Of a stretch of DNA of 62,182 nt, positions 11,519-62,158 are shown piece after piece. The position numbers and the translations under genes were made by a program. This DNA comes from an uncultured Pseudomonadota bacterium (GTDB taxonomy: Bacteria > Myxococcota_A > UBA796 > SXON01): NCBI GenBank assembly GCA_903921785.1, contig CAIXRH010000256.1:1-62182 (forward strand), written 5' to 3'. Below the pieces are notes generated by a model. That model saw only the letters and a program-made list of their open reading frames with translations, did not search any database and had not been told where the DNA came from. The first letter of the stretch is position 1; each line of letters opens with the position of its first letter.

Positions 11519-12568
11519 TCAGATCTTCCCCGTGATGTCGATCACGTGCAGCTGCCGCCAGTCGCTGCCCGCGGACGGGAGCGCCGTGAACGCGAGCCAG
11601 CTCTTGCCGCCTGCGGTAACCACGGAGGGCTCGCCGACGGCCGCCATGCCGGTCTTGATCTCAACGGTGCCGCTGCCGTCGAGCTTGGTGATGTACACCG
11701 AGCCGTCCTTCGCCGGCTCGCTGGAGCCATACACGACCGCCTTGCCGTCCGGAGTGAGGGCTGGCGCGGCCCGCTGAGGCAGGCGCACGTCCTTCGCGAG
11801 GATGCGGCGATCCCCGCCCGCGACCGGCACGATGCCGATGTCCCAGTGGTCGACGCCGCGCTCACCGGTGAAGTAGACGGTGTCCGTTCCCGCGAGGCGG
11901 GGCCGGGTCTGGTCGCCATTGCCGGTGGCGCCCTTCACCGGGGTCGCGGCCGTCTCACCGGCGCCGATGGTGAAGATGTCCTCCGAACCGTAGTTCTTGC
12001 GCGAGAACACCAGCCGCTTGCTGTCCGAGCCGAAGGTCGGGGCGTTCTCCGGCTCCTTGGTGCTCGGGAACGCCGCGGTGACCTTGTTCGTTGTCTGGGA
12101 GAACAACATCACGTCGCCCGAGCCGGAGGCCGAGCTGACGTACGCGACGGTGGTGCCGTCGGGCGAGATGGACGGCCACGCGAGCGCGCCGGGCGCCTGC
12201 GCCCCGCTGAGGTACTCCGCCGGCGCCGGGTTGGTGGCGGCCAGGTAGTACAGGCGCATCGTGCCGCCCGGGTTGGACCCCTGGAACAAGAGCACCTGCT
12301 GCTTCGGGTGCCAGACCGGCGCGGCCGCGAAGCCGCCACCTCCGGAGAAGCCCGAGGAGGAGCCGGGGATCACCACCTTGGTGGGCGCGCCCGGGGCCCC
12401 GGCGGTGATCTTCACCACGTACAGGTCCACCTTGTCGGCGTTGTTATTTACCTCGAACGCCAGGTAGTTTCCGTCGGCGGACCATTGGGGATTGCTCCCG
12501 TGACCTCCCCCGACCCAGGTGATCTCGGTGGCGTGGGCGAGCGTTGCGGCAAGCAGGGTGAGCATCAC
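11519..12568 (-). CDS. secreted TolB/PD40-type beta-propeller protein
   Basis: The 349-aa protein has a short signal peptide (about 1-14, ending AHA). Repeated blades follow, containing [42 protein letters not shown] and [14 protein letters not shown], the WD40-like PD40 repeats found in TolB and related periplasmic proteins. A propeller of six or so blades fits the length. Such domains bind partner proteins. It is the last gene of an eleven-gene operon and overlaps the preceding gene by 4 bp, so a role with the barrel-like protein and transporter is likely. No enzymatic motif is seen. Confidence 0.75.
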
Positions 12569-13785
12569 TTCTTCTTCCCTCCCTCGGCGGACGGGGCGAT
12601 GGTGAACGCGACCTGACCCCAGGGGTACAGGCGGCTGAGATCGGTCTGGGCGCCGCCTTCGACGCTGATCGCGCCGCGGAGGCTCCCGATGTCGGCGAAG
12701 GCGTAGGAGACGCTGGCCGCGCCCCCGCCTGCCATCAAGGTCCCGGTGAGCACCTCATACTCGGCGCCGGCGGCGTCGGAGTACGCGGCGTGACCCGTGG
12801 CGGGGTCCGTACAATCCAGCGATTTGCGGCAATCCGCCGCGACGCCCGTGACCGTGCCGGCGCCGATGCTCCAGATCGGGCCCGCGGCGACCCAGAAGTC
12901 GTCGAAGCGCAGGGAGGCGGCCAGCCATCCGTAGCCCATGTGGACCTGGTTGGTGGGAATCTCCACCCCGTCCTTCCGGGTGCCCTCCACCGTCGGGGCG
13001 CCGAAGAGGTCGTGGTACCCGACCTGGGCGATGACCCCGAAGTGTTCAGAGGCGCCGATCTCCAGCCCGAGCCCCACCCGCGCGCCCGGACCGCCGAACG
13101 CGCCGGGCTGCAAGCTGCCACCCGACTCCGGCTCACCGGAGAACAGCACGGCCGCGCCAGCGTCGATCCGCGGCCCCGCGTAGGCGAAGTGGAACAGGTG
13201 CCGCTTGTCGGTGGCCGCCGGAGCGATCGCCGCCACCGCGGGCGCCCCACCCACCGCCACCGTGATGGTGACCCCGGAGACGGTGTACTCGCCCGCGGGG
13301 AGGATGCCCTCGAAGTTGTGGTCGGCCACGTAGGTGGCGACCCAGGCGATGGCCGCGCGCTGGTCGGGGGCGAACGGAGGCACCGTGGGCACCAGCGAAC
13401 GCTCCCCGGTGTAGTCCGGATCAAAGGTGATCTTCACCGGGCCGTACTGCTGGTCGATCTCGGCGAGCCAGCTCACCACCTCGGGCTTGCCCTCGATCTT
13501 CGCAGCCTTGAGCAGGCGCGTCCGGCAGCCGCTCATGTCGCCGATGGAGCGGGCCGCTTCCGCCCCGAGCTTGTTCTCCTGGTAGGTCAGGACTTCGCCC
13601 TTGGCCTCCAGCTCCATGAGCTTCTCGTACTGGGCCTCGACCGCCGTCCAGGCGTTGCGCTGGGCGAGCTTCCGCATCTCCTCGCTCAGCCGGGTGTGCT
13701 CGGCGTGCGACACGTCGTCCGCGTGGGCGAGCGGGACGAGGATGGGGCTGAGCCCGAGGGCGCAGAGAATGAGCGTCCGGGTCAT
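12565..13785 (-). CDS. exported helical plus beta-barrel-like protein
   Basis: This 406-aa protein has a clear signal peptide (about 1-22, ending AHA). An Ala/Glu-rich alpha-helical part (about 25-110, TPR-like) follows, then a small beta domain ([12 protein letters not shown]). The C-terminal half alternates hydrophobic and polar residues with many Gly and aromatic residues ([43 protein letters not shown]). That pattern suits an outer-membrane beta-barrel, though no terminal aromatic is present and the protein ends in KKK. It overlaps both neighbours by 4 bp. It may be the outer-membrane component of the transport module; this is inferred. Confidence 0.6.
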
Positions 13786-14567
13786 GGGGCACCTCCGGGG
13801 TCGTGCCAGGGATCGAGGAGGGAGCGGGTGTAGGGGTGGCGGGCTTCTTCGTGGCGGAGGTCCACCACCTCGATCACCTCGCCTTCGAGCATCACCACCG
13901 CGCGGTGGCAATAGTCGACGGCGGCGTCGAGGTCGTGGGTCACCAGGATACACCCGGCCCCGGCGGGCAGGTTGCCGACCAGGTCTTCGAGCACGGCGGC
14001 GCGCCGGTCGGGATCGAGGCCGGAGGTGGGCTCGTCGGCGACGACGAGGCGGGGATTGAGCGCGAGCACGCGGGCGAGGGTGACCCGGCGTTGTTCGCCA
14101 CCGCTGAGCTCGCGAGGGAGCGCGTGGTGGCGGTGGGCAAGGCCGAGGCGGGCGAGCATCGTTGCGGCGACCTCCACCGCCTCCGCCGCCGACTTCCCGG
14201 CGAGGACGGTGAGCGTCTCCACGATGGCTTCGAGCACGGTCTGCTGGGGATCGAGCGCGGACATCGCGTCCTGCGGGATGTACTGGTAGGCCAGGCGCCG
14301 CGCCTGCCGCTCCCGCTCAGGCAAGTTGTCCCAGCGTTTTCCTTCGATCCAGATCTCCCCGAGGGTGGGGTTCTCCAGGCCGAGCACCATCCGCGAAAGC
14401 GTGGTCTTCCCCGAGCCGGACTGCCCGACCAGCGCCACGACCTCGTCGGGCTGAACCACCAGATCGACGCCGCGAACCGCATGAACCTGACGCCGCGGGC
14501 TCCATGGCCACGCGCCGGGCACGTCGAAGCGCTTGTGGACCCCCTTGACCTCGACGATCGCGCTCAT
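13782..14567 (-). CDS. Dpp/Opp-type ABC ATPase (DppF-like)
   Basis: The 261-aa ATPase has Walker A GQSGSGKT (about 50-57), signature LSGGEQRR, Walker [13 protein letters not shown] and H-loop VTHD. Near the C-terminus is HPYTRSLL, the motif that marks OppF/DppF-type subunits. It should power the permease pair encoded just upstream together with the next ATPase. The start ATG 14567 overlaps the previous stop (ATGA). The true substrate is unknown; family members import peptides, nickel and other solutes. Confidence 0.88.
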
Positions 14568-15301
14568 CCCGCCCCCCCGGCGCCGGCCGGCGCGGTGAGC
14601 CGCACGACGTGCTCCGCGATGCGGTGCACGGTGTCTTCGTGGTGGGAGATGAGCAGGATGCCGCAGTTGTGGGCCTTGCCGACCGTGAGCAAAAGCTCGA
14701 CGACCTGACGGCGAAGCACGGGGTCCAACCCGGTCTCCGGCTCGTCGGCGATGAGCAGGCGGGGGTCGGACGCCATGGCGATGGCGAGGGCGGCGCGCTG
14801 GCACTGCCCGCCGGAGAGCTCACCGGGAAGCGCGGAGGAGGCCCGCGCCGGCAGCCCGACCTCGCGGAGCAGCTCGGCCATCGCGGCCGCGGCGTCGGCC
14901 GGGCGCTTCTCCCGGCGCGAGACCGCGATCTCCATCTGCCGCCCGATGGTGCGCCCGGGGTTGAGCGCGCTGGACGCGGCCTGCGGCGAGTAGCTGATGT
15001 ACCCGCCGCGCAGCGCCTCGGTGGTCCGCAGGAGCCGGGCGTGCCCCGGCGCACCCGCCCCGGCGACGCCGGAGTACCAGTCGTGGTCGCCCCGCTCCGG
15101 CAGGTGCAAGGATCCGCCGGCGAGCCCGGGGAGCACGTCGATGACCCCCATGCAGGCCCGCGCCGTGAGCGACTTTCCCGAGCCCGAGGGCCCGCAGAGC
15201 GCCGTGACCTGCCCGGCGTGGACGGTGATGTCCACCCCCTCGACGAGCGGGCGGTCGGGCGCGCGGATCGCGAGCTGACGCAGGCGGAGGAGCTCGCTCA
15301 T
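14564..15301 (-). CDS. Dpp/Opp-type ABC ATPase (DppD-like, shortened)
   Basis: This 245-aa ATPase carries Walker A GPSGSGKS (about 36-43), signature LSGGQCQR, Walker B LLIADEPETGLD and H-loop ISHHED. It is about 80 residues shorter than usual DppD/OppD (around 325 aa): the C-terminal oligopeptide-transporter extension with its Cys cluster is missing. About 30 unusual residues (including DHDWYSGVAGAG) lie between Walker A and the Q-loop. It overlaps its neighbours by 4 bp on both sides and would pair with the DppF-like ATPase. Confidence 0.85.
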   Translation of the reverse strand: MSELLRLRQLAIRAPDRPLVEGVDITVHAGQVTALCGPSGSGKSLTARACMGVIDVLPGLAGGSLHLPERGDHDWYSGVAGAGAPGHARLLRTTEALRGGYISYSPQAASSALNPGRTIGRQMEIAVSRREKRPADAAAAMAELLREVGLPARASSALPGELSGGQCQRAALAIAMASDPRLLIADEPETGLDPVLRRQVVELLLTVGKAHNCGILLISHHEDTVHRIAEHVVRLTAPAGAGGAG

Positions 15302-16125
15302 CGCGCCCTCACCGCGGTGGTGGTGGAGCGGGCGATCACCGTGGTGAGCGCGACCAGGCCGAGGCCGAGCGCCAACGCGTGCCAGGTCGGCGTGCCGAGG
15401 CCGATGGCGGTGTACCCCATATAGAGCAGGTCAGCCCAGGACTTCAGCGAGTCGGGGTGGGTGAAGCTCGCTTCGTTCCCCTGCACGGCGAGGTAGCTGA
15501 GGCCGAGCTCGAGGAACGTGACCTGGAGGAGGACCTCCGCCGCCTGGCGCACCACCACCGGGCGAAGGTTCAACGCCACGATGTGGTAGAGGAACACCCG
15601 GCTCCACGAGAATCCGTGGGCACGGAGCGCCTCCACGAACCGGGCGCCGCCGAGCCGCTCGGCCACAGCCGCCGCTTCGTCCATCGCGCCGGGCGCCGCG
15701 AGGAGCGCCCACACCAGCGCGAGCGGGAGCAGCCCGCGGGACGTGCTGGGGATGAGCAGCGCCGCCACCAGGATGACCACCATTCGGGGCAGCGCGCCGA
15801 GCACCTCGCCGAGGCCCTGGATCAGGGCATCGACCCGCTGGTCGCCCACACAGCGAAGCAGCCCGCCCGCGATGCTGAGCACGGCCACGAAGCACGCCGC
15901 AGCCAACGCCGGGCCGATCACGATCTCGGCGCCCTGCTGCGCGTACTGCAACAGCGGCCGCCCGAGACGGTCCGCGCCGAAGGGCGGGAGCACGCTCGGC
16001 GACGCGAAGCGCATCGAGGGCTCGAGGGTCGCGTCGGAGAGGTGGGCGGGCGCGGTGATCGCCAGCAGGAACAACGCGGCGAACGCCGCGAGCGCCAGCC
16101 CGGCGGAGAAGCGGCGGGAGCTCAC
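15298..16125 (-). CDS. ABC permease, DppC-like
   Basis: The 275-aa inner-membrane protein starts with GTG overlapping the previous stop (GTGA). It has an N-terminal membrane helix, a short periplasmic stretch ending PFGADRLGRPLL (the family's GTDxxGRD region), and about five more helices. The EAA-like coupling loop lies around VEALRAHGFSWSRVFLYHI, where SWSRVFLYHI replaces the usual RIIxRHILPN. It would form the transmembrane pore with the DppB-like protein. Confidence 0.85.
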   Translation of the reverse strand: MSSRRFSAGLALAAFAALFLLAITAPAHLSDATLEPSMRFASPSVLPPFGADRLGRPLLQYAQQGAEIVIGPALAAACFVAVLSIAGGLLRCVGDQRVDALIQGLGEVLGALPRMVVILVAALLIPSTSRGLLPLALVWALLAAPGAMDEAAAVAERLGGARFVEALRAHGFSWSRVFLYHIVALNLRPVVVRQAAEVLLQVTFLELGLSYLAVQGNEASFTHPDSLKSWADLLYMGYTAIGLGTPTWHALALGLGLVALTTVIARSTTTAVRAR

Positions 16126-17060
16126 GCGGCCACCCGCGCCACGTCGGCGAGGACGGGGGCGCGGCGTACGTGCAGCGCGACGCCCACCTCGACGGCCGCC
16201 TGCACCACGAGGAGGAACGCGCTGAAACACGCGAAGGTCGTCGCGGCGGCGAGCACGACGCCGAAGTCCTGCTTCAGGGTGCCGCTCCAGAGCAGGTCGC
16301 CGACGCCGGTGAGGCCGAGGACGACCTCCACCACCACCGCGCCGCTGAGCAGGTGGAGGATGCGGGCGCGCAGCTGCCCGGTGAGGGCGGGCGCCACATT
16401 GGGGAGCATGTTCGCGAGCGGACGCTCCCCCCGGAGGATCGCGATGCTCACGTAGCGCTGGTTGCGCTCCGCGGAGAACACACCGCGAACACCGCTGACC
16501 GCAGACGCGAACGCGCCGTCGGAGAAGCCGAGCACCGCCGCGCCCACCACCAGCCGCCAGAGATTGGCCTCGCTGTCGAAGGCGCCCGCGCCGAACTTCA
16601 CCACGATCGCGGCCGAGCCGAGCAGGGAGAAAACCAGCGCGGGGACGAGGCCCACCGCGGAGAACAGGCCGTCCGTGCGCGCGGGGAGCAGGCCCGTGGC
16701 GGCGCCCACCACGCCCAGGAGGATGGGGATCAGGCTGAGCACCACCAGCTTCACGGTGACCGGGACGGAGTCGACCAGCAGGTCGGCCACCGGGAGCCCC
16801 TGCTCCACGCGCCAGCTGTTGCCGAAGTCCCCGTGCACGGCGTTGCCGACCCACTGCACGAAGAAGCTCCACGCCCCCTTGTCCAGGTGCCAGCGCGCGG
16901 CCAGCTCCGCGGTGCCGCTGCAGGTTGCCTTGGGGCAGATGATCTCCGAGGGATCGCCCGGGAGCGCCCAGATGAGCGCCGTGATGATCGCCGGCACCAG
17001 GAGCGGCAGCAAAACTGCGGCCAACAGGCGAACGCCAGGGCGAACCCACCACGCCTTCAT
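16122..17060 (-). CDS. ABC permease, DppB-like
   Basis: The 312-aa protein has a first membrane helix (about 11-33) ending in PGDPSE, as in DppB/OppB. A periplasmic stretch with GDFGNSW follows, then five further helices. The coupling loop is AERNQRYVSIAILRGERPL, a diverged EAA motif. The periplasmic part carries two cysteines (ICPKATC) that could form a disulfide. It lies 51 bp after the binding-protein gene and overlaps the DppC-like gene by 4 bp. Confidence 0.85.
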   Translation of the reverse strand: MKAWWVRPGVRLLAAVLLPLLVPAIITALIWALPGDPSEIICPKATCSGTAELAARWHLDKGAWSFFVQWVGNAVHGDFGNSWRVEQGLPVADLLVDSVPVTVKLVVLSLIPILLGVVGAATGLLPARTDGLFSAVGLVPALVFSLLGSAAIVVKFGAGAFDSEANLWRLVVGAAVLGFSDGAFASAVSGVRGVFSAERNQRYVSIAILRGERPLANMLPNVAPALTGQLRARILHLLSGAVVVEVVLGLTGVGDLLWSGTLKQDFGVVLAAATTFACFSAFLLVVQAAVEVGVALHVRRAPVLADVARVAA

Positions 17061-17111
17061 CGTGGGGCCCTCATCCGCTTCGGGTCCTGGCGAACCGCCG
17101 TCATCACCGGG

Positions 17112-18683
17112 CTACTGGAGCTTCCAGCCGTCGACCTCGGTCCAATAGTAGAACGGCGAGATCACGTTGCCCCGCACTTCGGTGCGCCAGGCGCTCTTGG
17201 TGTCGAGCTTCCAGAGGAACAGGTAGGGCAGGTCGGTGGCCAGGAGCGCGTGGAGCTTGTGGTAGGCATCGAACGCGGCGGTGTCGGTGCGCGCCTGGTT
17301 GTACTCGACCATCAACTGGTCGGCTTCCGGGTTGCTGTAGTTGAAGATGTTCCGCGAGCCGGTGCTGGTGCCCGAGCGGGTCTGGAAGAGGTCGTTGACC
17401 TCCTCCACGAGGCCGAACGACCACTTCCCGACCAGGAGGTCAAAGTCGGTGGCCTGACCGGACTCCACCTTCCGGGACCAGTCGTCCGCCGAGACCTTGG
17501 ACTCCTGGCGGTCGAAGCCGGCGGCGCTGAGCTGGTTGCCGATCTGGGTGAGCAGGTCGGGCGCTTCGTTCTCCAGGGAGGAGAGCATGCCGATGTTGAA
17601 GGTGACCGGGGCGCCCTTGTAGTGCCAGCGGCCGCCGATCTGGGTGAGGCCCGCGTCGGTGAGCAGCTTGGTGGCCGCCGTGCGGTCGGACTTCTCGTGG
17701 AACGTCACCTGCCGGTTGTAGAACGGCGAGGACTGCACGAACGGCCCGGAGATGAACTCGCACGGGCTGTTCTGCTCGCCGGGCTTTACGCCGATGGTGA
17801 GCTGGCGGAGGTCGGAACGATCGAGGATGAGGTCGAGCGCCTGGCGCACCTTGGGCACGGCGAGCGCGCCCTTCTTGGTGTTCACCGAGATGAACCACCA
17901 GGAGCGGAGGTCGTAGCTCTTGAGCTGCAGCTCGTCTGACGAGCTGACCTCGGGCCGGTACTGCGGCGCCACCGCGATGATCCCCTGCACGCCGTTGTTC
18001 CGCACCGTCGTGACCTGCACCTGCGGGTCCTGGACCTCCTGCAGCGAGAGCTGGGAGATCGTGGCCGCGTGATGCCCGTTGCCGTAGGCCTCGAAGGTGA
18101 CCCCCCGGCGACCCTTGCTGCCCTTGTACGGGCCGGAGCCCACCGGGTGCTGGCTGAAGTCGCTGTCGGGCACGATCTTGGTGTCCGTGAACTTCTCCGC
18201 CGGCAAGAGCGCGAACATCAGCCGCTCCTGGGGGTTGTGGAACACCTTCGTGAAGCGGATGGTGGCGATGGTGGGCGCCGTGGCGTCGCACCCGGCGAGG
18301 ATGCTGCGGTACCCCTCGGCGATGGGGCTGGTGGTGCCCTTGTCGAGCATCGCGGAGACGGTGAAGCACACGTCCTTGCTGGTGACCGGGTTGCCGGAGT
18401 GCCACTTCAAGCCCGACTTCAGGGTCAGCTTGTAGGACTTGCCACCGTCGGCCAGCTCATACTTCTCCACCACCCGGCTCACCATGCGGTTGTCGAGCGG
18501 GGAGTGGTAGAAGATGCGGTCGAAGATGAGCTCTTGCGACCGGTAGTCGGTCATCGAGCTCGCGTACAGCGGGTTGAGCGTGCCGGGGAGCTGCTCCTCG
18601 TAGAACGAGAGCTGCGCGCCCGCGAGGACGCTGGTGGCGGCGAGGCCGAGGGCGACGAGGGCGCCGCGAGAGAGAGAGGGCAT
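17112..18683 (-). CDS. family-5 solute-binding protein (module A)
   Basis: The 523-aa protein has a signal peptide (about 1-23, cleavage after LAGA) with no lipobox, so it should be free in the periplasm. The mature part follows the SBP_bac_5 pattern: PGTLNPLYA, then LKSGLKWHSGNPVTSKDVCF (the family signature), GSGPYK, VRQALDLILDRSDL and ISGPFVQSSPFYN. GAGGAG lies 5-10 nt upstream of ATG 18683. Family members deliver peptides or other solutes to Dpp/Opp transporters; the ligand cannot be read from sequence. A paralog at 60653-62158 shares the layout, including a matching ISGPFVPSSPYYN. Confidence 0.88.
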   Translation of the reverse strand: MPSLSRGALVALGLAATSVLAGAQLSFYEEQLPGTLNPLYASSMTDYRSQELIFDRIFYHSPLDNRMVSRVVEKYELADGGKSYKLTLKSGLKWHSGNPVTSKDVCFTVSAMLDKGTTSPIAEGYRSILAGCDATAPTIATIRFTKVFHNPQERLMFALLPAEKFTDTKIVPDSDFSQHPVGSGPYKGSKGRRGVTFEAYGNGHHAATISQLSLQEVQDPQVQVTTVRNNGVQGIIAVAPQYRPEVSSSDELQLKSYDLRSWWFISVNTKKGALAVPKVRQALDLILDRSDLRQLTIGVKPGEQNSPCEFISGPFVQSSPFYNRQVTFHEKSDRTAATKLLTDAGLTQIGGRWHYKGAPVTFNIGMLSSLENEAPDLLTQIGNQLSAAGFDRQESKVSADDWSRKVESGQATDFDLLVGKWSFGLVEEVNDLFQTRSGTSTGSRNIFNYSNPEADQLMVEYNQARTDTAAFDAYHKLHALLATDLPYLFLWKLDTKSAWRTEVRGNVISPFYYWTEVDGWKLQ

Positions 18684-18692
18684 GGAGACTCC

Positions 18693-20042
18693 TCAGTGCG
18701 TGGGGACGCCGGGGGCGGCGTTCCGGCTCAGTCGGATGTGGAGGGCGTCGAGCGGAGCGCGTGCGATGACGAGCCCCGGCACGGTGGACAGTTGCTGGTG
18801 GACCAGCTCGGTGGCGCGCGTGGTGTTGCGGTTGCCCGCGTCCCATGCGGCGAGGAAGACGATGAACACGGGGTCGGCCGCGTGGCCGATCGAACGGTCG
18901 AACGAGTTGATGCGGAGCACCCCGGAGGTGTCGTTCTCCCCGCGGGCTCGCGCGTAGAGGTCGACCGCGCGCAACGCGCCCGCCCGCGCATAGTCGGCGA
19001 AGGGCCGGTGGAACCCATCCGGCTGCCCCCCGTTCTGCGCCGCCATCCCCGCCTCGATCGCCTGACCCAGCTGCGCGGCCTGATCAATCACGCAGTCGGC
19101 GTCCACCTTGCCGGTGGTGCTGCACGCGTGGGCGATCGCCGCGTAGGCGCTGGTGGGCGCGAGCGCTTCGGCGCCGGGGAGGTCCCCCGCCGCGATCTTG
19201 GAGACGAACTGCATGTCGGCGGCGGAAGTGTACGCCGACATGAACAGCCAGGTGTCGGACACCGGGGCGCCGGTGGCGAGGTGTCGAGCCTCGAACGGCA
19301 ATCGGAACGGATCGAGCACCAGATCGACCGCCTCGGCGGAAGCCGGGTCGGCGGCGCGGGCCTGCGCTTCGTGCCAGCGCGAGAGCGCGTACAGGTCCGC
19401 GGGGTCGCCGCCATCCACCGCGCCCGGCTCGCCGACGAGGGGCAGCGGGGTGGGCACGAGCGAGCCGCCCGGGAGGTCCCCCGGCTTGCCCTGGATCGCC
19501 GCGAGGCCCGACGGCTCGTCCGGCATCGCCGCCGGGTTGGCCTTGACCCAGGCGGCCCACGTCGCGTCGCGCTTGGCGAAGTCGCCGGCGGTGCTCGTGC
19601 CGTTCTTGCCAAGGGAAGCAGAAGGATCGCCCTGCTTGGTGAAAAACCGGGCCACGCCGAGGAGGTAGTCGACCTCGGCCGGGTCGCTGGGCTGGCGATC
19701 GTCTCCGTACACCTGGAGCGCGGCGTTGGCGGCGATGAGCGCCGCCTGTCGGTAGATGGCGGCGTATTCCGCGTGCGCACGGGAGAGACCGGGGCCGTCG
19801 GACTCGCTGGCGAAGGCCGCGAGCGCCTCAGGCCGGCGCTGGTCGTACCAGGCGAGCCAGCTTCCCCGGCCCTCGAAGGGCGCGCGCGCATCGGCCTTGG
19901 CCATGCGCACCTGCCAGGTGGCCGCCACCACGTCGGCGCTGGCGCCGAGCGGTACCTGGATGATCGCGGCCGGAGGGGCCACCGCCTCCTCGCTGCCGCA
20001 GGCCGCGAGGCTGAGCACGAACCAGAACATACCCGGCGTCAT
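18693..20042 (-). CDS. helical lipoprotein of module A
   Basis: This 449-aa lipoprotein (signal peptide ending LAAC, Cys15) is Ala-rich and mostly alpha-helical, with no recognised family. Part of it resembles the lipoprotein at 59508-60638: both have a Trp/Arg-rich stretch followed by SRAH-E-A-YR (here [16 protein letters not shown], there SRAHGELARYYRVLAEL). Both precede a family-5 binding protein. This conserved pairing suggests it holds or assists the binding protein. It starts in an ATGA overlap with the previous gene and ends 9 bp before the binding-protein gene. Confidence 0.7.
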
Positions 20043-21376
20043 CCCTCGCAGAACGCGCGGTTTCCGGACGCGGATACGCAGATCGCCATGGCGCTCTTGG
20101 TGTCCTGACCGCTGGCCTTGGCGTAGTCGAGCCACTCCCGGGCGAAGTCCTTGGTCTGGCCGCGCCACTTGGCGGCGGTCGCCTCGTTCTCGTCGGTGTG
20201 CTCCTTGGTGGCGTAGGTCTCTTCGGCGTCGGTCCAAAGCTTGTTGGCGGCTTCGGTCTTGAGCCGGTAGAGGTCGTACACCCGCTTGGTGTAGGTGGTG
20301 CCGGACCAACGCTGCTTGTTGTCCAGCGCGTAGTCAGACCAGCGGATCACGCCTTGCGCACGCCCCGTGCCGCCGCGGCTGAGCTGGGTGGCGTACTTGA
20401 AGCACATGTCGGGGTCGGAACGATCGATGTCTTCGAGGTGGCGCTTGACGAGGCGCTCCCACTCCACCTTGTCGCCCTTGCCTTCGGCGTTGGCGATGAG
20501 CACGCGGGAGAGCTTGTCCTTCATGGTCTGGGCACCTTCGGTGCCGATGCGGCCCTCGATACACTTGACCTGACCCGTACGCAGCTGCCCGAGCATGGCC
20601 TGCGGCTCGAGCTTCACCAGATCGGTGCACGTGTCATCGGTGGCGGCCGCCGCCGTGGGCGGGGGGACCGACTTCATCGCGGTCGCGGTGGGCGCCGCGG
20701 GAGTCGGCGCGGCGGTGGGGGCCGGGGTGGGCGCGGGCGTCTTCGCCGCCGTGGCGGTCGGGGCCGCGGGCGTCGGCGTCGGCGCCGGGGTGGGCGCGGG
20801 GGTCTTCGCGGCCGTGGCCGTCGGCGCCGCCGGGGTAGGAGCGGGCGTGGGAGCCGGCGTCGGCGCCTTCGCAACGGGCGTAGGAGTGGGCGTGGGCGTG
20901 GGCGTCGGGGTCGGCGTCTTCGCAACCGGCGTCGGGGTTGGCGCGGGCGTGGGCGTCGGCGTGGGGGCCGCCACGGGCGGCGTGTTCACCGCCACGGGCG
21001 GCGTGGCCTCCACCGGCGGCGCAGCCTCAACGGGCGGCGCGGCTTCCACCGGAGGAGCGGCCTCCACCGGCGCCGCCGCTGCGACTCCACCGACCGGGCC
21101 GGTGTAGACCGAGAGGGTGACGAACGGCGAGAAGACGGCGGTCGGCTTCAGGTCGAACCAGCCGATTCGAGCGTCGGACTGGATCGGGCGACCGGCCGCG
21201 TCATGCGCCATGCCGGGGCCCACGGCGACCGTGCCGACGCGACAGCCGGCCCACCCGTCCGGGCAAGGCTGGGCGGGGAAGGCGGAGTTGTAGCTCGACC
21301 ACCCGCCGGCGAGGGCGGGAACGGCGAACAACGCCAGGCCGAGGACGCCGGTGCTCATGAGCGCGCGGATACGCAT
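20039..21376 (-). CDS. exported protein with Thr/Pro/Ala stalk and helical C-terminal domain
   Basis: The 445-aa protein has a signal peptide (about 1-23, ending ALA) and a small Cys/Trp-containing N-terminal domain (about 24-85). A stalk of Thr/Pro/Ala repeats (about 90-245) follows, built from TPTPTP runs and three copies of AAPTATA(A/M)K. The C-terminal helical domain (about 249-445) resembles the end of the pseudokinase at 55993-59085. Shared positions include [13 protein letters not shown] / [24 protein letters not shown] / NPVFLADYA and the TKRVYDLY / KKTEIYEV helix. It probably spans the periplasm. Position in the operon links it to the binding protein and transporter. Confidence 0.7.
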
Positions 21377-21381
21377 GTCGC

Positions 21382-21810
21382 CTACTCCTTGGACTCGCGG
21401 GGAACATCCCGCCCGAAAGTGATCATCGGCTCTTCGATCTGCTCGACCTCGTTCTCGATCTTGTGCAGCTTGAGCTCGACGACGTTGCGCCGCTTACGAA
21501 TCTGGTACTGGAAGACCTGGGTGACGTAGCCGGGGGCGCTGATCTCCAGGTCGACCGTCTGGCCGGGGGTGAAACGAAGCTCGGTGCCGTCGGGCAGGTA
21601 GAGCACGCTGGTCTCCCAGCTGCCGTCTACGGAGTTCACCCGATGGCGATCGGCCTCGAGGGGGTGACGGACCACCGCAGTCGCGATGGGCTTGTTCTCA
21701 TCATCCTTGACGATGACCTTGACGGGGACGCCCTCGTTGGGGTCCTTGGGCTTGGCCTCGGCGACGCCAACACTGGCGATAAGGCCAAGGAGAAGGAAGA
21801 GATTACGCAT
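21382..21810 (-). CDS. small exported carboxypeptidase-regulatory-like protein
   Basis: The 142-aa protein has a signal peptide (about 1-19, ending AEA) and one beta-sandwich domain of the carboxypeptidase-regulatory type. [11 protein letters not shown] starts the repeat, DGSWETSV turns it, and [18 protein letters not shown] closes it. The tail is acidic. The protein at 59082-59507 has the same domain with matching landmarks (KPIGRANVALAP, DGRFMIDYL). Such domains bind surfaces or partner proteins and are not enzymatic. It lies 1 bp after the TPR lipoprotein and 5 bp before the stalk protein. Confidence 0.72.
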
Positions 21811-21811
21811 T

Positions 21812-22834
21812 TCAGCCTCCCGCGGCGGGCGCGAATTGGGCCTTGAACACCGGATCGACCGCGACCGTTCCCGCCGTTTGCAGATCGCCCAGGAGCGCCC
21901 AGGCACGCGCGGCAGCGTCGCCCGACTGGCCCTCGAGGAGCTTGCGGGCCGTTTCTCCATCGCGCTCGGCGATGAGCAGGGCGGCGGTGGCGCGGGCATC
22001 CGCCAGACCGTCGGCCGGGGCGATGGCGCTCACCTTCTCGAAGCCGCCGAGGCAATCCGCGCCGTTGCCCTCGGCGCAGGCGACCATCGCGCGGGTGGCC
22101 TGGAGGCGCCAGACCTGCCCCGGCGGTGCGACCGGGATGGCATCGAGCAGGTTGGTGGCGATCGCCGGCTCCCCTACCGTGGCGGCGCGGCCGGCCCAGA
22201 GCAGGAGCTGATCGGCACCATCGTCGCGAACCTGGGCGTAGGCGACCACGAGGTCTTCCACGGAGCGCACCGCGATGGGGCGCTGACCGAGCGCCCAGAG
22301 CGCCTGCACCTCCGAGAGACCGGCGACGCGCGTGTCGGGATCGTTGATGAGGCCGAGGTAGGCCTTGGCGGTATCCCCGACCGCGCCTGCCTCGCCCTGA
22401 ATCGCCTCGAGCTGACCCTTGGCCGTGGCCTTGTCGCCATCGGCGAGGGCGACCTCTGCGACCAGAAGCTTCGCCTCGGGGGTGCCGGCGTCGGTCGCCT
22501 GCTTCTTCACGGCGTCGAGATCGCCGGTCTCAATGGCGACCAGCGCGCGGCGCATCTTGATCTCCGAGAGCCGCGGCCCGGCCTGCGCTTCGGCGGCGGC
22601 GAGCAGCGTGTCGGCCGCGGCAGGGTTTCCCTGAAGCAGCTTCACGTAGGCGGCACCGGAGACCAGGTCGAGGTTTCCCGGGGCCTTTTGCAGCGCGGCG
22701 TCGTACACGGCGGCGGCGCCGTCCAGATCGCCGGCCTTGAGCTTCGTTTCGGCCTCGGCCGCCTGCTTGGCGGGGTCGGCGAGGAAGCCCTGCACCACCG
22801 CACAGCCCCACAACGACATCAACAGCACGGACAT
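21812..22834 (-). CDS. TPR-like lipoprotein heading the module A operon
   Basis: This 340-aa protein starts MSVLLMSLWGC, a very short signal peptide with lipobox Cys11. Ala-rich helical hairpins follow (AKQAAEAETKLKAGDLDGAAAVYDAALQKAP and so on), the TPR pattern through most of the length. TPR domains mediate protein-protein contacts. It is the first gene of the eleven-gene minus-strand operon; the divergent kinase gene starts 135 bp away, so the region between probably holds both promoters. There is no obvious counterpart in module B. Confidence 0.75.
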   Translation of the reverse strand: MSVLLMSLWGCAVVQGFLADPAKQAAEAETKLKAGDLDGAAAVYDAALQKAPGNLDLVSGAAYVKLLQGNPAAADTLLAAAEAQAGPRLSEIKMRRALVAIETGDLDAVKKQATDAGTPEAKLLVAEVALADGDKATAKGQLEAIQGEAGAVGDTAKAYLGLINDPDTRVAGLSEVQALWALGQRPIAVRSVEDLVVAYAQVRDDGADQLLLWAGRAATVGEPAIATNLLDAIPVAPPGQVWRLQATRAMVACAEGNGADCLGGFEKVSAIAPADGLADARATAALLIAERDGETARKLLEGQSGDAAARAWALLGDLQTAGTVAVDPVFKAQFAPAAGG

Positions 22835-22969
22835 GAAGGGCAGACTCCGCGGGGAGGATATGCCGGGGGCGATCGCGGCGCAACGGGCCTCCCTCCGCCT
22901 CCCGTGAGGTCGTGCGGGAGCGCGCGGCGGTCCGGCGGAATACAGCTCAGCTGGAGTCATAGCAAACCG

Positions 22970-24697
22970 ATGGACGCTGGCGCTGGCGCACGCGGAGTGG
23001 AGCTTCGGCTCCTCCACGAGATCAACGCCGGAACCTTTGCCCGCCTGTACCTGGCGGAGATCAGCGGCGCTGCCGGCCTTGATCGAATCGTCGCGGTGAA
23101 GCTCCTGCGCGAACAGTGGAACGAGCAGCAGGACATCGTCGCGCGCACCCGCGATGAAGCGCGGCTGCTCGCCCGGCTGCGCCACAAGAACATCCTCCGG
23201 GTCGAGGATCTCGTGGAGGTCGACGGGCAGACCGCGATCATCATGGAGTATGTCGACGGGCTCGATCTCAAGCAGCTCGTGGACGGGCTCCGGGATCGCC
23301 GGCAGCGGGTGCCCGCCAAGGTGGCGCTCCAGGTGGCGCTGCAGGCGGCCTCGGCGCTGGAGGCCGCCTACTTCCGCGTGCCCACCGGCATGGATCAGCC
23401 GCTCCGCGTCGTGCATCGGGACGTGAAGCCGAGCAACATCATGCTCAGCGTGGAGGGCGAGGTCCGCGTGCTCGACTTCGGCACGGCCCGCTCCAACCAC
23501 ATCTCCCGCTCGGCGCAGACCGTGGCCATGCGCTTCGGCTCCCCGAAGTACATGTCGCCTGAGCGGAAGGAAGGAGATCGGGGCGAACACGCAGGCGACA
23601 TCTACGCGCTCGGGCTGGTGCTGCTCGAGCTGCTCCGCACCGACTGGCTCCCGATGCTCCCGATGGACGTCGGCGAGCACGACGAGGCGATCACCCAGGC
23701 CATCGCGCGGCTCGATCAGCTCGGCATGCCCAACTCCGAGTGGGACATGACGCTGCGGCAGGTGCTCGGGCAGATGCTCGCGAGCGAGCCGAGCGTCCGT
23801 CCCACCGCCGAACAGCTGGTGAAGCTGCTCCGGGCGTTCGTCGAGCAGGCGTCGGGCCCCATGCTCGACCGGTTCGCCCACGAGACCGTCCTCCCGCTCA
23901 CGCGGGAGCTCCGGGAGCCCACGGGCGGTGGCGCGCTCGCCGGCCGACGGCTGCTGGTGCAGGCGCTCGGCGAGGCCAACCGCGGCGGTTCCGGGCCGCA
24001 CCCCACCCCGCAGCCCTCGCGCACGGCGGACCCTCAGGGGCGCTCGGGGGGGAACGCGCCGGCTCCGCGGGCATCGAGCCCAGCGCCGACCCCACAACCC
24101 CGGGCCTCGAACCCGCGGTCGGCCCCGGTGCCCGCTCCCCCAGAGGTAGAGGGCGGCGGGAACACCGCGCTGGCGGTGGGCGCCGGCCTCTTCGTGCTCG
24201 TCGGCGTCGGGCTGGTGGTCGTGGTGCTTCTCGGCGGTCTCGGCTGGTATTTCTGGGGGCGCGGCGACGTTGCCTCCCCTCCCCCGGTCGTGGTGAGCGC
24301 CGATCCATCCACGGGCACGACCGGCGGCAGCTCCGCGGGCGGCGGCACGACGGCCGGCGGCGGCACCGCGGGAACGACGACCGGCGTCTCCGCGGATCCC
24401 GGGGGCACACCGGGCGCCAGCCGGTCTGGCGCGCCGGTGCTCGTCACCACGGGCGGCGAGCCGACCCAGTGGGTGCACCTGGAGTCCGGGGGGAGCACCG
24501 TGGCGGAGGGCCGCGGAAAGCTCGACGCGTCCGCCCCTCCGGGAGACTACGAGCTGGCCGTGAAGCTGGTCGGCCGGGAGGTGCTCCGGGGCTCGATCTC
24601 GGTGCCCGAGGCCGGCGTGAAGCTCGACTGCACGACGGATGCCCACAAGAACCTCAAGTGCACCTCCGGCAAGCGCACGTACACCCTCAAGCCTTGA
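22970..24697 (+). CDS. transmembrane Hanks-type Ser/Thr protein kinase
   Basis: The 575-aa protein has a complete kinase domain (about 10-285): Lys44 in VAVK, Glu63 in helix C, HRDVKPSN with Asp151 and Asn156, DFG at 169-171, and SPE later. The glycine loop is degenerate (INAGTFARLYLA). A disordered Pro/Ser-rich linker follows, then one membrane helix (about 399-425), a Gly/Thr/Ser spacer and a PEGA-like extracytoplasmic domain (about 495-575). It should phosphorylate Ser/Thr in the cytoplasm in response to an envelope signal. It is transcribed divergently from the module A operon, which likely makes it that operon's kinase. Confidence 0.9.
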   Translation: MDAGAGARGVELRLLHEINAGTFARLYLAEISGAAGLDRIVAVKLLREQWNEQQDIVARTRDEARLLARLRHKNILRVEDLVEVDGQTAIIMEYVDGLDLKQLVDGLRDRRQRVPAKVALQVALQAASALEAAYFRVPTGMDQPLRVVHRDVKPSNIMLSVEGEVRVLDFGTARSNHISRSAQTVAMRFGSPKYMSPERKEGDRGEHAGDIYALGLVLLELLRTDWLPMLPMDVGEHDEAITQAIARLDQLGMPNSEWDMTLRQVLGQMLASEPSVRPTAEQLVKLLRAFVEQASGPMLDRFAHETVLPLTRELREPTGGGALAGRRLLVQALGEANRGGSGPHPTPQPSRTADPQGRSGGNAPAPRASSPAPTPQPRASNPRSAPVPAPPEVEGGGNTALAVGAGLFVLVGVGLVVVVLLGGLGWYFWGRGDVASPPPVVVSADPSTGTTGGSSAGGGTTAGGGTAGTTTGVSADPGGTPGASRSGAPVLVTTGGEPTQWVHLESGGSTVAEGRGKLDASAPPGDYELAVKLVGREVLRGSISVPEAGVKLDCTTDAHKNLKCTSGKRTYTLKP

Positions 24698-55428: not shown

Positions 55429-55462
55429 ACTCCGGAGGGTATCGCGGTCGGGGGGCCCGGCG

Positions 55463-55906
55463 CTACTTGCCGTCTTCGGGGAGGAGCCGCCGCCAGGCCA
55501 TCACCCGCACCTGCCCCGGCCCGACGATGGTCCCGACGATCAGCACCGGGTCCCCGGCGAAGCGGCGCAGCTCGGGCGCCTGCTGGTCGTCGAGCACGAG
55601 GGTGGTGCCGGTGTTGCGGTCGTCGAGGAGCACCCGGGCGCCGTAGGCCTGCAGCACGCCGACGAAGCCGCTGGAGCCGTCCCCCGCGTCTTTCACCCGC
55701 CAGTCGGTGACGACCAGTCCGGCCGGCGTACGCGTGCCCTCCACCTCCACGACGCAACCCTGCAGGTAGCGGATGGGCGCGGATGTCTCATCGAGCACCA
55801 GGGCAACCCGGCCGCCCTGGTAGCCGTCGAGGAACACCGTCGTGGGCGTGGGCGCCACCAGACCGGCGCGGGTGACGTGAAAAGCACACCCGAGAAGCAA
55901 GCTCAT
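55463..55906 (-). CDS. small lipoprotein, OB-fold-like
   Basis: The 147-aa protein begins MSLLLGC, an extremely short signal peptide with Cys7. Beta strands follow in an OB-like order (VALVLDETSAPIRYLQGCVVEVEG, GLVVTDWRV, RVLLDDRNTGTTLVLDD, PVLIVGTIV). ATG 55906 was chosen; an in-frame ATG 18 nt upstream would add MEGGMW. No family is recognised. selC lies 34 bp downstream. It is divergent from the pseudokinase gene (86 bp between), so it may be co-regulated with module B. Confidence 0.6.
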   Translation of the reverse strand: MSLLLGCAFHVTRAGLVAPTPTTVFLDGYQGGRVALVLDETSAPIRYLQGCVVEVEGTRTPAGLVVTDWRVKDAGDGSSGFVGVLQAYGARVLLDDRNTGTTLVLDDQQAPELRRFAGDPVLIVGTIVGPGQVRVMAWRRLLPEDGK

Positions 55907-55992
55907 CCACATCCCACCCTCCACGGAGCGCTTGACGGCGACCCCTCGCCAAAGTAGCCTCCTGGCTGGTTCGGACGCTCGCTGGAGCCGAA

Positions 55993-59081
<3,089 letters not shown>

Positions 59082-59085
<4 letters not shown>

Positions 59086-59507
59086 CCCGCTCCGCCTGGG
59101 TGCTCGCCGCCCTGCTCCTCGCGAGCGGCTGCGCGAAGCACCACGCCATCCTCGGCCAGGTGATCGACCGCAACGGCAAGCCCATCGGCCGCGCCAACGT
59201 GGCCCTCGCGCCCGGCAACGTGGAGATCATCACCGACGACGACGGCCGGTTCATGATCGACTACCTCCGCGACGCCGAGGGCACCCGGGTGAAGCTCGGC
59301 CGGCGCACCGACTACAAGGTCGAGTACTTCAAGGTCGGCTACCACCCCAGCGAAGCGGCGTTCTACTACAAGAACGGCGAGCTGGTCCTCGACCCGGTCA
59401 CGCTGACCGAAGACACGATCCACGTGAGCGAGGCGGGCGGGCAGTTCGATCCGGCCACCGCTCCGGACCGCGGTCAGGACGGCGGCGGAAGCTACGAGGG
59501 GGAGTAG
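59082..59507 (+). CDS. carboxypeptidase-regulatory-like lipoprotein (module B)
   Basis: The 141-aa protein has a signal peptide ending LASGC (Cys17). One carboxypeptidase-regulatory-type beta domain follows (AILGQVIDRNGKPIGRANVA, DDDGRFMIDYL, YKVEYFKVGYHPSEAAFYY) and an acidic Gly-rich tail. It is the counterpart of the protein at 21382-21810, with the same landmarks, but here it is lipid-anchored. ATG 59082 overlaps the pseudokinase stop, and its own stop is directly followed by the next GTG. Confidence 0.8.
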
Positions 59508-60638
59508 GTGCGGTTCGGCGGGCTCGCGCTCCTCGCGGGGCTCGTCGCGTGTGGCACCGAGGACTCGGAGCCCACGCGGTCCGTCTCGCCGATCGAGGCG
59601 ACGTGGATGGCCAAGATCGTGAAAGATCCCGGCTCGTTCACCACCCGGGTGTCGGCTTCACGTGAAGGGTGGATCGCGGTCCATCGAAACGACTGGAGCG
59701 CGGCGGTCGCGGCGGGCGGAGACCCCGCATCCCGCGCCCATGGCGAGCTCGCCCGCTACTACCGGGTGCTCGCCGAGCTGGACGGCGAGGTGTGGGCGCG
59801 TCTGGGCGAACGTTGGCGCGCCCGCGGTCCCCTCCCCGCCGGCTCCCAGATCGACTGGTTCGTCGGCACCGCGCTCAACGACGCCGGCCGCGAAGAAGAA
59901 GCGAAAGCCTGGCGCTCGGGCGACAACCCCGACGCGACGATCACCGCGCGGAAGGCCCTCCACGACACCATCCGGGGTGGAGCTGGTGACGCCGCGGCGC
60001 TGCGCGCACCCGGCTTCGCCACGTTGTTGCACGAGCCGGCCGACGGCGGCACGCGGGACCTGAGCGACCCGTGGCTCCTGCACACCCTCGCGCTCGATGA
60101 AGCGCGTCGCGCCAGCGCCGCCCCGCCGCTGGACCCTTCGCTCTTCTCCGGCGACCTCGGCGCCCCGCTCGCCCTGCCCGAACCCGACACCGACCCGGTC
60201 GCCGACGCCGATGCCTGCCGGGAGCGGGTGCGCGCCATGGACGCCGAGCTCGACGCCTGGCGGGTCGGCGCCACCGCCGCCGCGAGCCCCGACGGACTCG
60301 CGCTCCTCCACGACCTCCGCCTCGTGGACGCCACCCGCGCCCGCGCCCTGGTCGACGCCGCCGTCGGCGCGCTCGACGCGGGGCGCCCCGCCTGCGCCCT
60401 CGCCCTGGGGCAGCTCGCGCTCGACCACGAGTCGCCCCGCGAAGTCGGACCTGCCAATTCCCCCACGCTCTTCGCGGTGGTGGCCAGCGCGGACCTTCGC
60501 GTCGGCCGCACCCGCGAAGCGCTCGACGCCATTGACGTGCTCGCCCACGACGCCCCCGAGGTCGAGGGGCTGGCCGAGACGCTCGGCACCCTGGTGGTGC
60601 TCGAGGGCCTGGACCGCCGCGGCGACAGCCGCGAGTGA
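59508..60638 (+). CDS. helical lipoprotein of module B
   Basis: The 376-aa protein (GTG start immediately after the previous stop) has a signal peptide ending LVAC (Cys15). It is Ala/Asp-rich and alpha-helical. It resembles the lipoprotein at 18693-20042, including SRAHGELARYYRVLAEL, and like it precedes a family-5 binding protein. Shorter by about 70 residues. Probably a holder or accessory factor for the binding protein; unknown family. Confidence 0.72.
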   Translation: MRFGGLALLAGLVACGTEDSEPTRSVSPIEATWMAKIVKDPGSFTTRVSASREGWIAVHRNDWSAAVAAGGDPASRAHGELARYYRVLAELDGEVWARLGERWRARGPLPAGSQIDWFVGTALNDAGREEEAKAWRSGDNPDATITARKALHDTIRGGAGDAAALRAPGFATLLHEPADGGTRDLSDPWLLHTLALDEARRASAAPPLDPSLFSGDLGAPLALPEPDTDPVADADACRERVRAMDAELDAWRVGATAAASPDGLALLHDLRLVDATRARALVDAAVGALDAGRPACALALGQLALDHESPREVGPANSPTLFAVVASADLRVGRTREALDAIDVLAHDAPEVEGLAETLGTLVVLEGLDRRGDSRE

Positions 60639-60652
60639 ACCCTGGATACCCC

Positions 60653-62158
60653 ATGAACCGATCGATGCTCTCCGCCCTGCTCCTGCTCCCGCTCGCCGCC
60701 TACGCGGGCAACCTCCGCTACGCGGAGGACCAGGCGCCCGCCCTGCTCAACCCCGTCTTCGGCGCCTCGATGGCCGAAGCCCGGGCCAACGAGCTGGTCT
60801 TCGAGAGCTTGTACACCGACAACCCCGAGCTGCAGACCACGCCGGCGCTCGCCGAGTCCGCCGAGGTCGCGGCCGACAAGCTCTCGATGGTCGTGACGCT
60901 CCGCTCGGACGTCACCTGGCACGACGGGCAGGCCTTCTCCGCGGACGACGTCGTCTACACCGTGAAGACCATGCAGGACAAGGCCACCGCGTCCACCGAA
61001 TACGGGCGGGTCTCCTGGATCAAGGACATCTCCGCGGACGACGCGACGCACGTGCGCATGACGTTTGTGCACCCCGAGGTCCGCCCGGAGGACAAGCTCT
61101 TCTTCAAGATCCTCCCCAAGCACAGCTTCGCCGCCGGGCCGATGAAGCGCACCGACCCGTTCCGCACCAAGCCAATCGGCACCGGGCCTTGGAAGGTCAC
61201 CCAGTTCAACGAAGACAACTCGGTCACGTTCTCCAAGAACCCCGGGTGGCGGAGCTCGGTGGGCATCGACCAGGTGACGCTCCGCGAGGTGGCGGACAAG
61301 AACTACCAGGCGAAGCTCGTGCTCTATGAGAGCCTGGAGGCGCTGGTGCGGGTGCTCCCGCGGGACCTCGCCATCCTCCAGAACAACCGCAAGGTGGAGC
61401 TGTACCCCTACCAGACCAACTCCTGGTGGTACCTCGGCTACAACCTCAACCGCCCGCTGCTCGCCAACGCCTCGGTTCGCCACGGGATCGCCGATCTGGT
61501 CGATGTGGACGCGCTCCTCGCCCCCGTCGGGACGGGCGCCCGCATCAGCGGCCCGTTCGTGCCGTCGAGCCCCTACTACAACCACGACGTGACCCTCGCC
61601 GAGCCCGACGACGACGCCGCGGCGACCCTCCTCGCCCAGGGTGGGCTGGTGAAGACCAACGACGACTGGACGCAGGGTGGCCGCCCCGTGGTGCTCACCG
61701 CGGTGGCCCACAAGTCGGTGGAGAGCGTGCAAGAGGTGGCGATCAACCTCCAGTCGCAGCTGCAGACGGCGGGGATCCAGCTCAAGGTCGACTTCCTCGA
61801 CGACGCCGAGTGGAAGCAGCGGGTGTGGAAGGACCACGACTACGACCTGCTGCTGAGCCAGTGGACCTTCGACCGCAACGAAGACATTCGTGAACAATTC
61901 CACAGCCAAGGCACCCGGAACTTCGTGGGCTACGCCAACCCGGCGGTAGACACGTTGCTCGACAAGGCCCGCGACGCCACCGACCCCTTCGTGCGCAAGG
62001 CCGCGCTCCGCGACGTGCACAAGCTCGTCGCCGCCGACCAGCCGATGGTCTTCTTGTGGACGCTCGACAGCTACGCGGCCCTCTCGGTGAAGGTCAAGAA
62101 CGTGGTGGTGCACCCGTTCTACTTCTTCACCTTCGCCCCGCAGTGGGGGCTCAAGTAG
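60653..62158 (+). CDS. family-5 solute-binding protein (module B)
   Basis: The 501-aa protein has a signal peptide (about 1-18, ending AYA) without lipobox. The SBP_bac_5 pattern follows: ALLNPVFGAS, LRSDVTWHDGQAFSADDVVY (family signature), GTGPWKVTQF, ISGPFVPSSPYYN and QWTFDRNEDI. It is a paralog of the protein at 17112-18683. An in-frame GTG at 60635, in a GTGA overlap with the previous gene, is an alternative start that adds six residues. Its cognate permease and ATPase genes are expected beyond the right edge. Confidence 0.88.
   Translation: MNRSMLSALLLLPLAAYAGNLRYAEDQAPALLNPVFGASMAEARANELVFESLYTDNPELQTTPALAESAEVAADKLSMVVTLRSDVTWHDGQAFSADDVVYTVKTMQDKATASTEYGRVSWIKDISADDATHVRMTFVHPEVRPEDKLFFKILPKHSFAAGPMKRTDPFRTKPIGTGPWKVTQFNEDNSVTFSKNPGWRSSVGIDQVTLREVADKNYQAKLVLYESLEALVRVLPRDLAILQNNRKVELYPYQTNSWWYLGYNLNRPLLANASVRHGIADLVDVDALLAPVGTGARISGPFVPSSPYYNHDVTLAEPDDDAAATLLAQGGLVKTNDDWTQGGRPVVLTAVAHKSVESVQEVAINLQSQLQTAGIQLKVDFLDDAEWKQRVWKDHDYDLLLSQWTFDRNEDIREQFHSQGTRNFVGYANPAVDTLLDKARDATDPFVRKAALRDVHKLVAADQPMVFLWTLDSYAALSVKVKNVVVHPFYFFTFAPQWGLK

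What the first reader, a model, noticed from the sequence alone, without database searches (positions are those of the whole stretch)
11519..62158. Two paralogous kinase-linked Dpp-type transport modules (possible undescribed system)
Module A (11519-24697) and module B (55993-62158) share four kinds of component in the same order. These are a Pro/Ala stalk plus helical domain, a carboxypeptidase-regulatory-like small protein, a helical lipoprotein with SRAH-type motif, and a family-5 binding protein. Each module also has a Hanks-type kinase fold: separate and active beside A, fused and inactive in B. The fusion in B of parts that are separate in A is a Rosetta-stone argument that kinase and stalk protein act together. 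Known Dpp/Opp systems lack these parts. I infer an envelope-spanning solute uptake or sensing machine controlled by phosphorylation.
Basis: partly seen in the sequence, partly recalled or inferred. Interest (0 to 1): 0.85.

Follow-up and report, generated by a model that had tools for sequence, protein, structure and literature searches.

The report
Kinase-linked peptide-type transport operons, duplicated
Uncultured relatives of myxobacteria carry two related gene sets that each join a peptide-type nutrient transporter to a protein kinase or to a kinase that has lost its active site; the layout is conserved across dozens of genera and looks like an undescribed way of sensing a small molecule outside the cell and passing the signal in.

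Summary
The core observation holds. Module A and module B are paralogous operons. Profile comparisons link their SBPs (E 1.7e-83), kinase folds (7e-40), lipoproteins (3.7e-9) and CarbReg proteins (2.5e-9). The stalk TPR domains link only through sister-order intermediates (3.1e-5). One detail is wrong: the order differs. A is TPR-CarbReg-stalk-lipoprotein-SBP-DppBCDF-OMP-PD40; B is pseudokinase:stalk-CarbReg-lipoprotein-SBP, then usually DppBCDF and often PD40 in relatives (this contig ends there).

The arrangement is strongly conserved. In the same order, 17 of 19 A loci have a divergent kinase and 19 of 21 B loci the kinase-fold fusion. Related operons occur in other families of the class and in three families beyond it. 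Zero of 17 generic family-5 SBP loci had a kinase nearby.

B's kinase is a pseudokinase in every genome read from the order, under purifying selection. The same fusion is catalytically canonical in a sister order, so activity was probably lost. One relative encodes a direct kinase:SBP fusion.

Best reading: an SBP-sensing, kinase-signalling envelope system tied to a Dpp-type importer, working like actinobacterial GlnH-GlnX-PknG but built from different parts. Ligand, substrate and contacts are inferred. I found no description in open-access papers.

The parts
22970..24697 (+). Module A Hanks-type Ser/Thr kinase, one TM, weakly PEGA-like C-terminus; divergent from the operon
   Evidence: Pfam Pkinase 5.3e-35; VAVK, E, HRDVKPSN, DFG present; TM C-terminal of kinase domain in 17/17; divergent neighbour in 17/19 assessable A loci; the PEGA-like reading is by eye
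21812..22834 (-). Module A TPR lipoprotein
   Evidence: TPR_19 3.7e-7; conserved in 19 A loci including the window
21382..21810 (-). Module A CarbReg-like small secreted protein
   Evidence: hhalign to module B counterpart 2.5e-9
20039..21376 (-). Module A stalk protein: signal peptide, N-terminal domain, Pro/Ala stalk, TPR-like domain with five invariant Cys
   Evidence: alignment A1; AF2 pLDDT 95; domain in 57 of 63 genomes of the order, none elsewhere in the phylum sample
18693..20042 (-). Module A helical lipoprotein (invariant R..H motif)
   Evidence: hhalign to B counterpart 3.7e-9; invariant R87, H89
17112..18683 (-). Module A family-5 solute-binding protein
   Evidence: SBP_bac_5 1.7e-39
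16122..17060 (-). DppB-like permease
   Evidence: BPD_transp_1 2.9e-8
15298..16125 (-). DppC-like permease (divergent)
   Evidence: BPD_transp_1 0.015, below cut-off; position conserved across A loci
14564..15301 (-). DppD-like ATPase
   Evidence: ABC_tran 1.1e-19; ATP-binding motifs intact
13782..14567 (-). DppF-like ATPase
   Evidence: ABC_tran 1e-31; ATP-binding motifs intact
12565..13785 (-). Secreted protein with helical N-terminus and barrel-like C-terminus (putative outer-membrane protein)
   Evidence: no Pfam hit; conserved at this place in the A loci that reach it; barrel reading is by eye
11519..12568 (-). PD40 beta-propeller secreted protein
   Evidence: PD40 9e-17; conserved last gene of the operon
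55993..59085 (+). Module B fusion: pseudokinase, Pro/Ala linker, TM, Pro/Ala stalk, periplasmic TPR-like domain (58588-59082)
   Evidence: Pkinase 2e-24; K->R, E->R, HRD->HLS, DFG->GYG; TM between the domains in 22/22; AF2 pLDDT 93; dN/dS 0.03-0.16
59082..59507 (+). Module B CarbReg-like lipoprotein
   Evidence: CarboxypepD_reg 3.3e-7
59508..60638 (+). Module B helical lipoprotein
60635..62158 (+). Module B family-5 solute-binding protein; last gene before the contig end
   Evidence: SBP_bac_5 3.7e-63

Best explanation
The two modules are paralogous, anciently conserved operons for a kinase-coupled solute-binding system. Proposed working: a family-5 SBP captures a peptide-like solute in the periplasm. 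The SBP, the lipoprotein and the CarbReg protein dock with the TPR-like domain of a stalk protein that is fused to, or encoded beside, a single-pass Ser/Thr kinase. Occupancy of the SBP is thereby passed across the inner membrane to the kinase (module A) or to a pseudokinase that acts as an allosteric switch or scaffold (module B). The DppBCDF importer removes or takes up the ligand. The barrel-like and PD40 proteins link the complex to the outer membrane or wall. Shown: the genes, homologies, synteny, topology patterns, catalytic-site status, constraint, and one direct kinase:SBP fusion. Inferred: ligand class, protein contacts, direction of signalling, and kinase substrate.
For: Layout conserved in 19 A and 21 B assessable loci, with nearly constant spacing. 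Related operons in sister families f7 and f9 and outside the class in f24, f17 and f38. Natural series: separate active kinase plus stalk, fused canonical, fused pseudokinase. 0 of 17 generic family-5 SBP loci have a kinase in the fetched 17-20 kb. Direct kinase - probable TM - SBP fusion in one relative, and a lone A-type SBP next to a kinase without permeases in another. A module B with no DppBCDF downstream in another genus. One TM between cytoplasmic and periplasmic parts in every module A kinase and module B fusion scanned. Pseudokinase dN/dS 0.03-0.16, as low as the active kinase. All module SBPs form one clade apart from the generic SBPs sampled, 100/100. Precedent: an SBP controls a TPR-containing Ser/Thr kinase in GlnH-GlnX-PknG (PMC6069109, PMC9769921).
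Against: No experiment. The kinase:SBP fusion was seen once in 71 genomes of the class. Transporter ATPases keep their motifs, so uptake may be the main role with the kinase secondary. In genus g2 the pseudokinase fusion lies on a different contig from module B. No kinase was found beside the second f9 module, and no clear one in the f38 loci. Conserved neighbourhood shows a functional link, not a direction of signalling.
Confidence: 0.55

Rival explanations
1. A nutrient importer gated by phosphorylation: the kinase responds to cytoplasmic or membrane state and phosphorylates the DppD/F ATPases or permeases; the SBP is only the uptake receptor.
For: DppBCDF next to nearly all modules, ATPase motifs intact.
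Against: SBP fused directly to a kinase, a lone SBP beside a kinase without permeases, a module B without permeases, and a catalytically dead kinase fold in B.
Confidence: 0.25
2. A structural trans-envelope importer: stalk, TPR, CarbReg, barrel and PD40 proteins form a bridge bringing ligand through the outer membrane; the kinase fold is mainly a cytoplasmic anchor or assembly scaffold.
For: Pseudokinase in B kept under strong selection without catalytic residues; kinase-free TM stalk in the second f9 module; envelope proteins co-conserved.
Against: Kinase A keeps the catalytic residues in most genomes and sister-order fusions are canonical; a scaffold role alone would not need them.
Confidence: 0.13
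3. Mere genomic proximity of a transporter and unrelated kinase genes in kinase-rich genomes.
For: These genomes are kinase-rich; one search finds many kinase matches per genome.
Against: 0/17 control loci against 17/19 and 19/21; fixed spacing and orientation across six families; fusions.
Confidence: 0.02

Closest known systems
GlnH-GlnX-PknG signalling of Actinobacteria (PMC6069109, PMC9769921)
   Same: A periplasmic SBP is genetically coupled to a Ser/Thr kinase whose activation depends on a TPR domain; genes are co-conserved.
   Different: There the SBP is the amino-acid-binding GlnH, the transmitter is a four-TM receptor and PknG bears the TPR domain itself; here a family-5 SBP, single-pass kinase or pseudokinase, periplasmic TPR-like stalk, and a complete Dpp-type importer in the operon. 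It works like it; it is not filed as a member.
Dpp/Opp peptide ABC importers (TC 3.A.1.5)
   Same: Family-5 SBP, two permeases, two ATPases with intact motifs.
   Different: Module A ATPases lack a detectable oligo_HPY C-terminal region; operon adds kinase, stalk, TPR and CarbReg proteins, a helical lipoprotein, barrel-like and PD40 proteins.
PASTA-type receptor kinases (PknB/Stk1)
   Same: Cytoplasmic Hanks kinase, one TM, extracytoplasmic part.
   Different: No PASTA repeats found; 160 bits against a cut-off of 450.
Described bacterial Ser/Thr pseudokinase families (review PMC12599244)
   Same: Conserved loss of the catalytic motifs.
   Different: That text does not mention Myxococcota, solute-binding proteins, ABC transporters or TPR; sequence comparison with those families was not done.

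Membership tests
Dpp/Opp peptide ABC importer | family-5 solute-binding protein | tested here: met
   SBP_bac_5 1.7e-39 and 3.7e-63
Dpp/Opp peptide ABC importer | two BPD_transp_1 permeases | tested here: met
   DppB 2.9e-8; window DppC only 0.015; module B pair in L107 7.1e-13 and 2.9e-9
Dpp/Opp peptide ABC importer | two ABC ATPases with Walker A/B and signature | tested here: met
   40/40 module A ATPases; the B pattern misses examined are mostly conservative Walker B variants
Dpp/Opp peptide ABC importer | oligo_HPY C-terminal region on ATPases | tested here: not met
   no match at E<=0.1 in the window nor in L107; weak 1.5e-4, below cut-off, in L296
Dpp/Opp peptide ABC importer | imports peptides | not testable with these tools
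   no assay
Hanks-type Ser/Thr kinase (active) | K, E, HRD, DFG catalytic set in module A | tested here: met
   window copy and most orthologues
Hanks-type Ser/Thr kinase (active) | same set in module B | tested here: not met
   K->R/H and HRD Asp lost in every order copy read, DFG altered in all but one; hence pseudokinase
GlnH-GlnX-PknG | SBP gene co-conserved with a Ser/Thr kinase gene | tested here: met
GlnH-GlnX-PknG | GlnX-type four-TM transmitter | tested here: inconclusive
   none recognised among conserved operon genes; no direct GlnX search
GlnH-GlnX-PknG | FHA-domain substrate (GarA/OdhI) | not tested
   no FHA scan of the genome
PASTA kinase | PASTA repeats and NF033483 cut-off | tested here: not met
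   160 vs 450 bits, no PASTA domain

The most novel reading that the evidence does not exclude
A previously undescribed class of bacterial receptor machine in which a Dpp-type importer, a periplasmic TPR-like stalk and a transmembrane kinase/pseudokinase pair form one complex that measures solute occupancy of the SBP, with the module B pseudokinase acting as an allosteric partner of the module A kinase.
Probability: 0.3. Interest if true: 0.88.

Novelty: new variant of a known kind. Interest (0 to 1): 0.7.

Why it matters
What activates bacterial Ser/Thr kinases is called an outstanding question (PMC6069109). Here nature supplies a conserved SBP-stalk-kinase set, a one-polypeptide kinase:SBP fusion, and an active-to-dead kinase series in the same architecture, so ligand sensing by a Hanks-type kinase and the function of a bacterial pseudokinase become directly testable.

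Tried and rejected
Coincidence of kinase and transporter genes: rejected (0/17 controls against 17/19 and 19/21). The stalk domain as homologous by direct A-B comparison alone: not significant (0.011); accepted only with intermediates. Fold search of the stalk domains against the PDB gave only generic TPR matches with no E below 0.001, so no functional clue. Completing module B in the same genome: a barrel-like relative lies on contig C345 next to what reads by eye as a two-component signalling protein, not the importer, and no close module-B ATPase was found; the assembly gap remains. Conserved flanking genes: purH and a small protein beside B, nothing functional. Literature searches found no description of the operon; subscription journals and preprints are not covered. 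Structure prediction of SBP/stalk complexes was not possible (both jobs used).
Full report
WHAT IS THERE. The window is one complete contig, C256, of a 7.5 Mb genome. Related sequences in named records come from uncultured Deltaproteobacteria/Myxococcota MAGs. After correcting starts, module A is an eleven-gene operon on the minus strand: TPR lipoprotein, CarbReg-like protein, Pro/Ala stalk protein with a helical domain, helical lipoprotein, family-5 SBP, DppB, DppC, DppD, DppF, a barrel-like protein and a PD40 propeller, with a Ser/Thr kinase divergent from it. Module B on the plus strand is a kinase-fold:stalk fusion, CarbReg protein, lipoprotein and SBP. It ends with the contig 24 bases after the SBP stop.

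CHECK OF THE PAIRS. Using alignments from 20 A loci and 20 B loci, hhalign gives SBP 1.7e-83, kinase fold 7e-40, lipoprotein 3.7e-9 and CarbReg 2.5e-9. Mismatched pairs give 0.04-0.8. The stalk domain alone gives 0.011, which is not convincing. Sister-order stalks are recognised by the module B profile (for example 6e-15 for two of the second f9 modules); with them included, A against B becomes 3.1e-5. Both domains are predicted with high confidence as TPR-like bundles with corresponding helix order, but the PDB matches are generic TPR folds. I regard stalk homology as likely, not proven. The claim of identical order is wrong: CarbReg and stalk are swapped between A and B.

CONSERVATION. In the same order of bacteria the A layout, including spacing, is nearly invariant. 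The divergent kinase is present in 17 of 19 assessable loci. The B layout carries the kinase-fold fusion in 19 of 21, window included, and in most relatives DppBCDF follows, with PD40 in many. In genus g2 the fusion has moved to another contig. The stalk-A domain is found in 57 of 63 genomes of the order and nowhere else in the phylum sample. The stalk-B domain is found in the order, in families f7, f8 and f9 of the same class, and with a broader profile in f24 (9 of 13 genomes held), f38 and f17. There it again sits with a CarbReg gene and, where the contig reaches, the SBP, permease genes and PD40, and in five f24 loci with a separate kinase that has all catalytic residues. As a base rate, none of 17 generic family-5 SBP loci from the same order has a kinase in the fetched 17-20 kb. 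Three further loci chosen as controls turned out to hold A-type SBP paralogues and are not counted.

EVOLUTION OF THE KINASE. In f7 and f24 kinase and stalk are separate genes. In three f9 genomes they are fused with canonical catalytic residues, next to a second kinase gene. In module B of this order they are fused, and in every copy read the catalytic Lys is Arg or His, the HRD Asp is lost, and DFG is altered in all but one. Yet the pseudokinase domain has dN/dS 0.03-0.16 within the genus, like the active kinase of module A. So activity was probably lost once, early in the order, and the fold is still needed. Three A kinases (L118, L127, L134) also show altered motifs, and two more (L131, L133) a changed residue at the Glu column. 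The SBP tree puts all module SBPs in one clade apart from the generic SBPs sampled, with A and B each monophyletic and broadly following the species families. The placing of the two f9 modules beside A is uncertain because of the long A stem.

TOPOLOGY. All 17 module A kinases have a hydrophobic segment after the kinase domain. All 22 module B fusions have one between kinase fold and TPR domain. Five invariant cysteines in the stalk-A domain fit a periplasmic, disulphide-bonded fold. Lipobox-like motifs occur in most TPR and helical lipoproteins.

LINK BETWEEN SBP AND KINASE. In one relative (L311) a single open frame encodes an apparently active kinase, a probable TM segment (read by eye; it falls under the hydropathy threshold used) and an A-type SBP. 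No second copy was found in the class, so an assembly error is not excluded. In another (L309) an A-type SBP paralogue lies about 1.4 kb from a kinase without permeases, and in a third (L310) an AHSA1-type domain is joined to an A-type SBP. In genome G012 (L101) module B has no DppBCDF in the 8.9 kb downstream. These cases make sense if the SBP is a sensor whose partner is the kinase. The ATPases keep their motifs, so transport probably still happens.

MECHANISM. I think the most likely working is: SBP binds a peptide-like solute; lipoprotein, CarbReg and the TPR-like domain read its state; the single-pass kinase (A) or pseudokinase (B) carries the signal to the cytoplasm; the importer clears or uses the ligand. 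Ligand class rests only on the SBP family, whose nearest solved relatives are peptide, nickel and other binders. Direction of signalling, contacts and substrates are inference.

COMPARISON. The closest functional precedent is GlnH-GlnX-PknG, where an SBP controls a TPR-containing Ser/Thr kinase. The parts are different, so this is a resemblance in working, not membership. The transporter core belongs near the Dpp/Opp importers but module A lacks a detectable oligo_HPY region. No paper in the open-access library describes the operon; that search cannot exclude subscription literature.

LIMITS. Most genomes are fragmented MAGs; loci near contig ends were not counted. Relatives beyond the named records are unnamed. 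Kinase detection used a profile built from module kinases and neighbouring kinases. Topology calls use a simple hydropathy scan, and the barrel reading of the 12565-13785 protein is by eye.

Noticed in passing
L311:8036-10690 (+): Single open frame: Ser/Thr kinase, probable TM, family-5 SBP; the only such fusion seen in the class.
   Followed up: partly
L310:8201-10672 (+): AHSA1/SRPBCC-type domain joined through a hydrophobic segment to an A-type SBP.
   Followed up: no
L222:9684-11603 (-): Secreted caspase-like (C14) protein carrying the stalk-A TPR-like domain; the expected catalytic Cys appears replaced. A second stalk-A-domain copy occurs in most genomes of the order, and those read in f1, f2, f4, f5 and f6 look of this kind.
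   Followed up: partly
L274, L275, L276: In family f9 two Ser/Thr kinase genes stand in tandem inside the operon, the second fused to the stalk.
   Followed up: partly
window 24744-27458 (+): Large CarbReg-containing lipoprotein downstream of kinase A, conserved in the genus and in G012.
   Followed up: partly
window 55463-55924 (-): Small protein upstream of module B; in relatives a small protein and purH lie beside module B, so the locus position is conserved.
   Followed up: partly
L136, L144, L146, L151: Public MAG records named Klebsiella pneumoniae or Bifidobacterium breve that hold this Myxococcota-type locus; the names look wrong.
   Followed up: no
L277, L279, L280, L290: First ATPase of the second f9 module shows no Walker A at the aligned place in all four; possibly degenerate, or an effect of where the profile match begins.
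   Followed up: no
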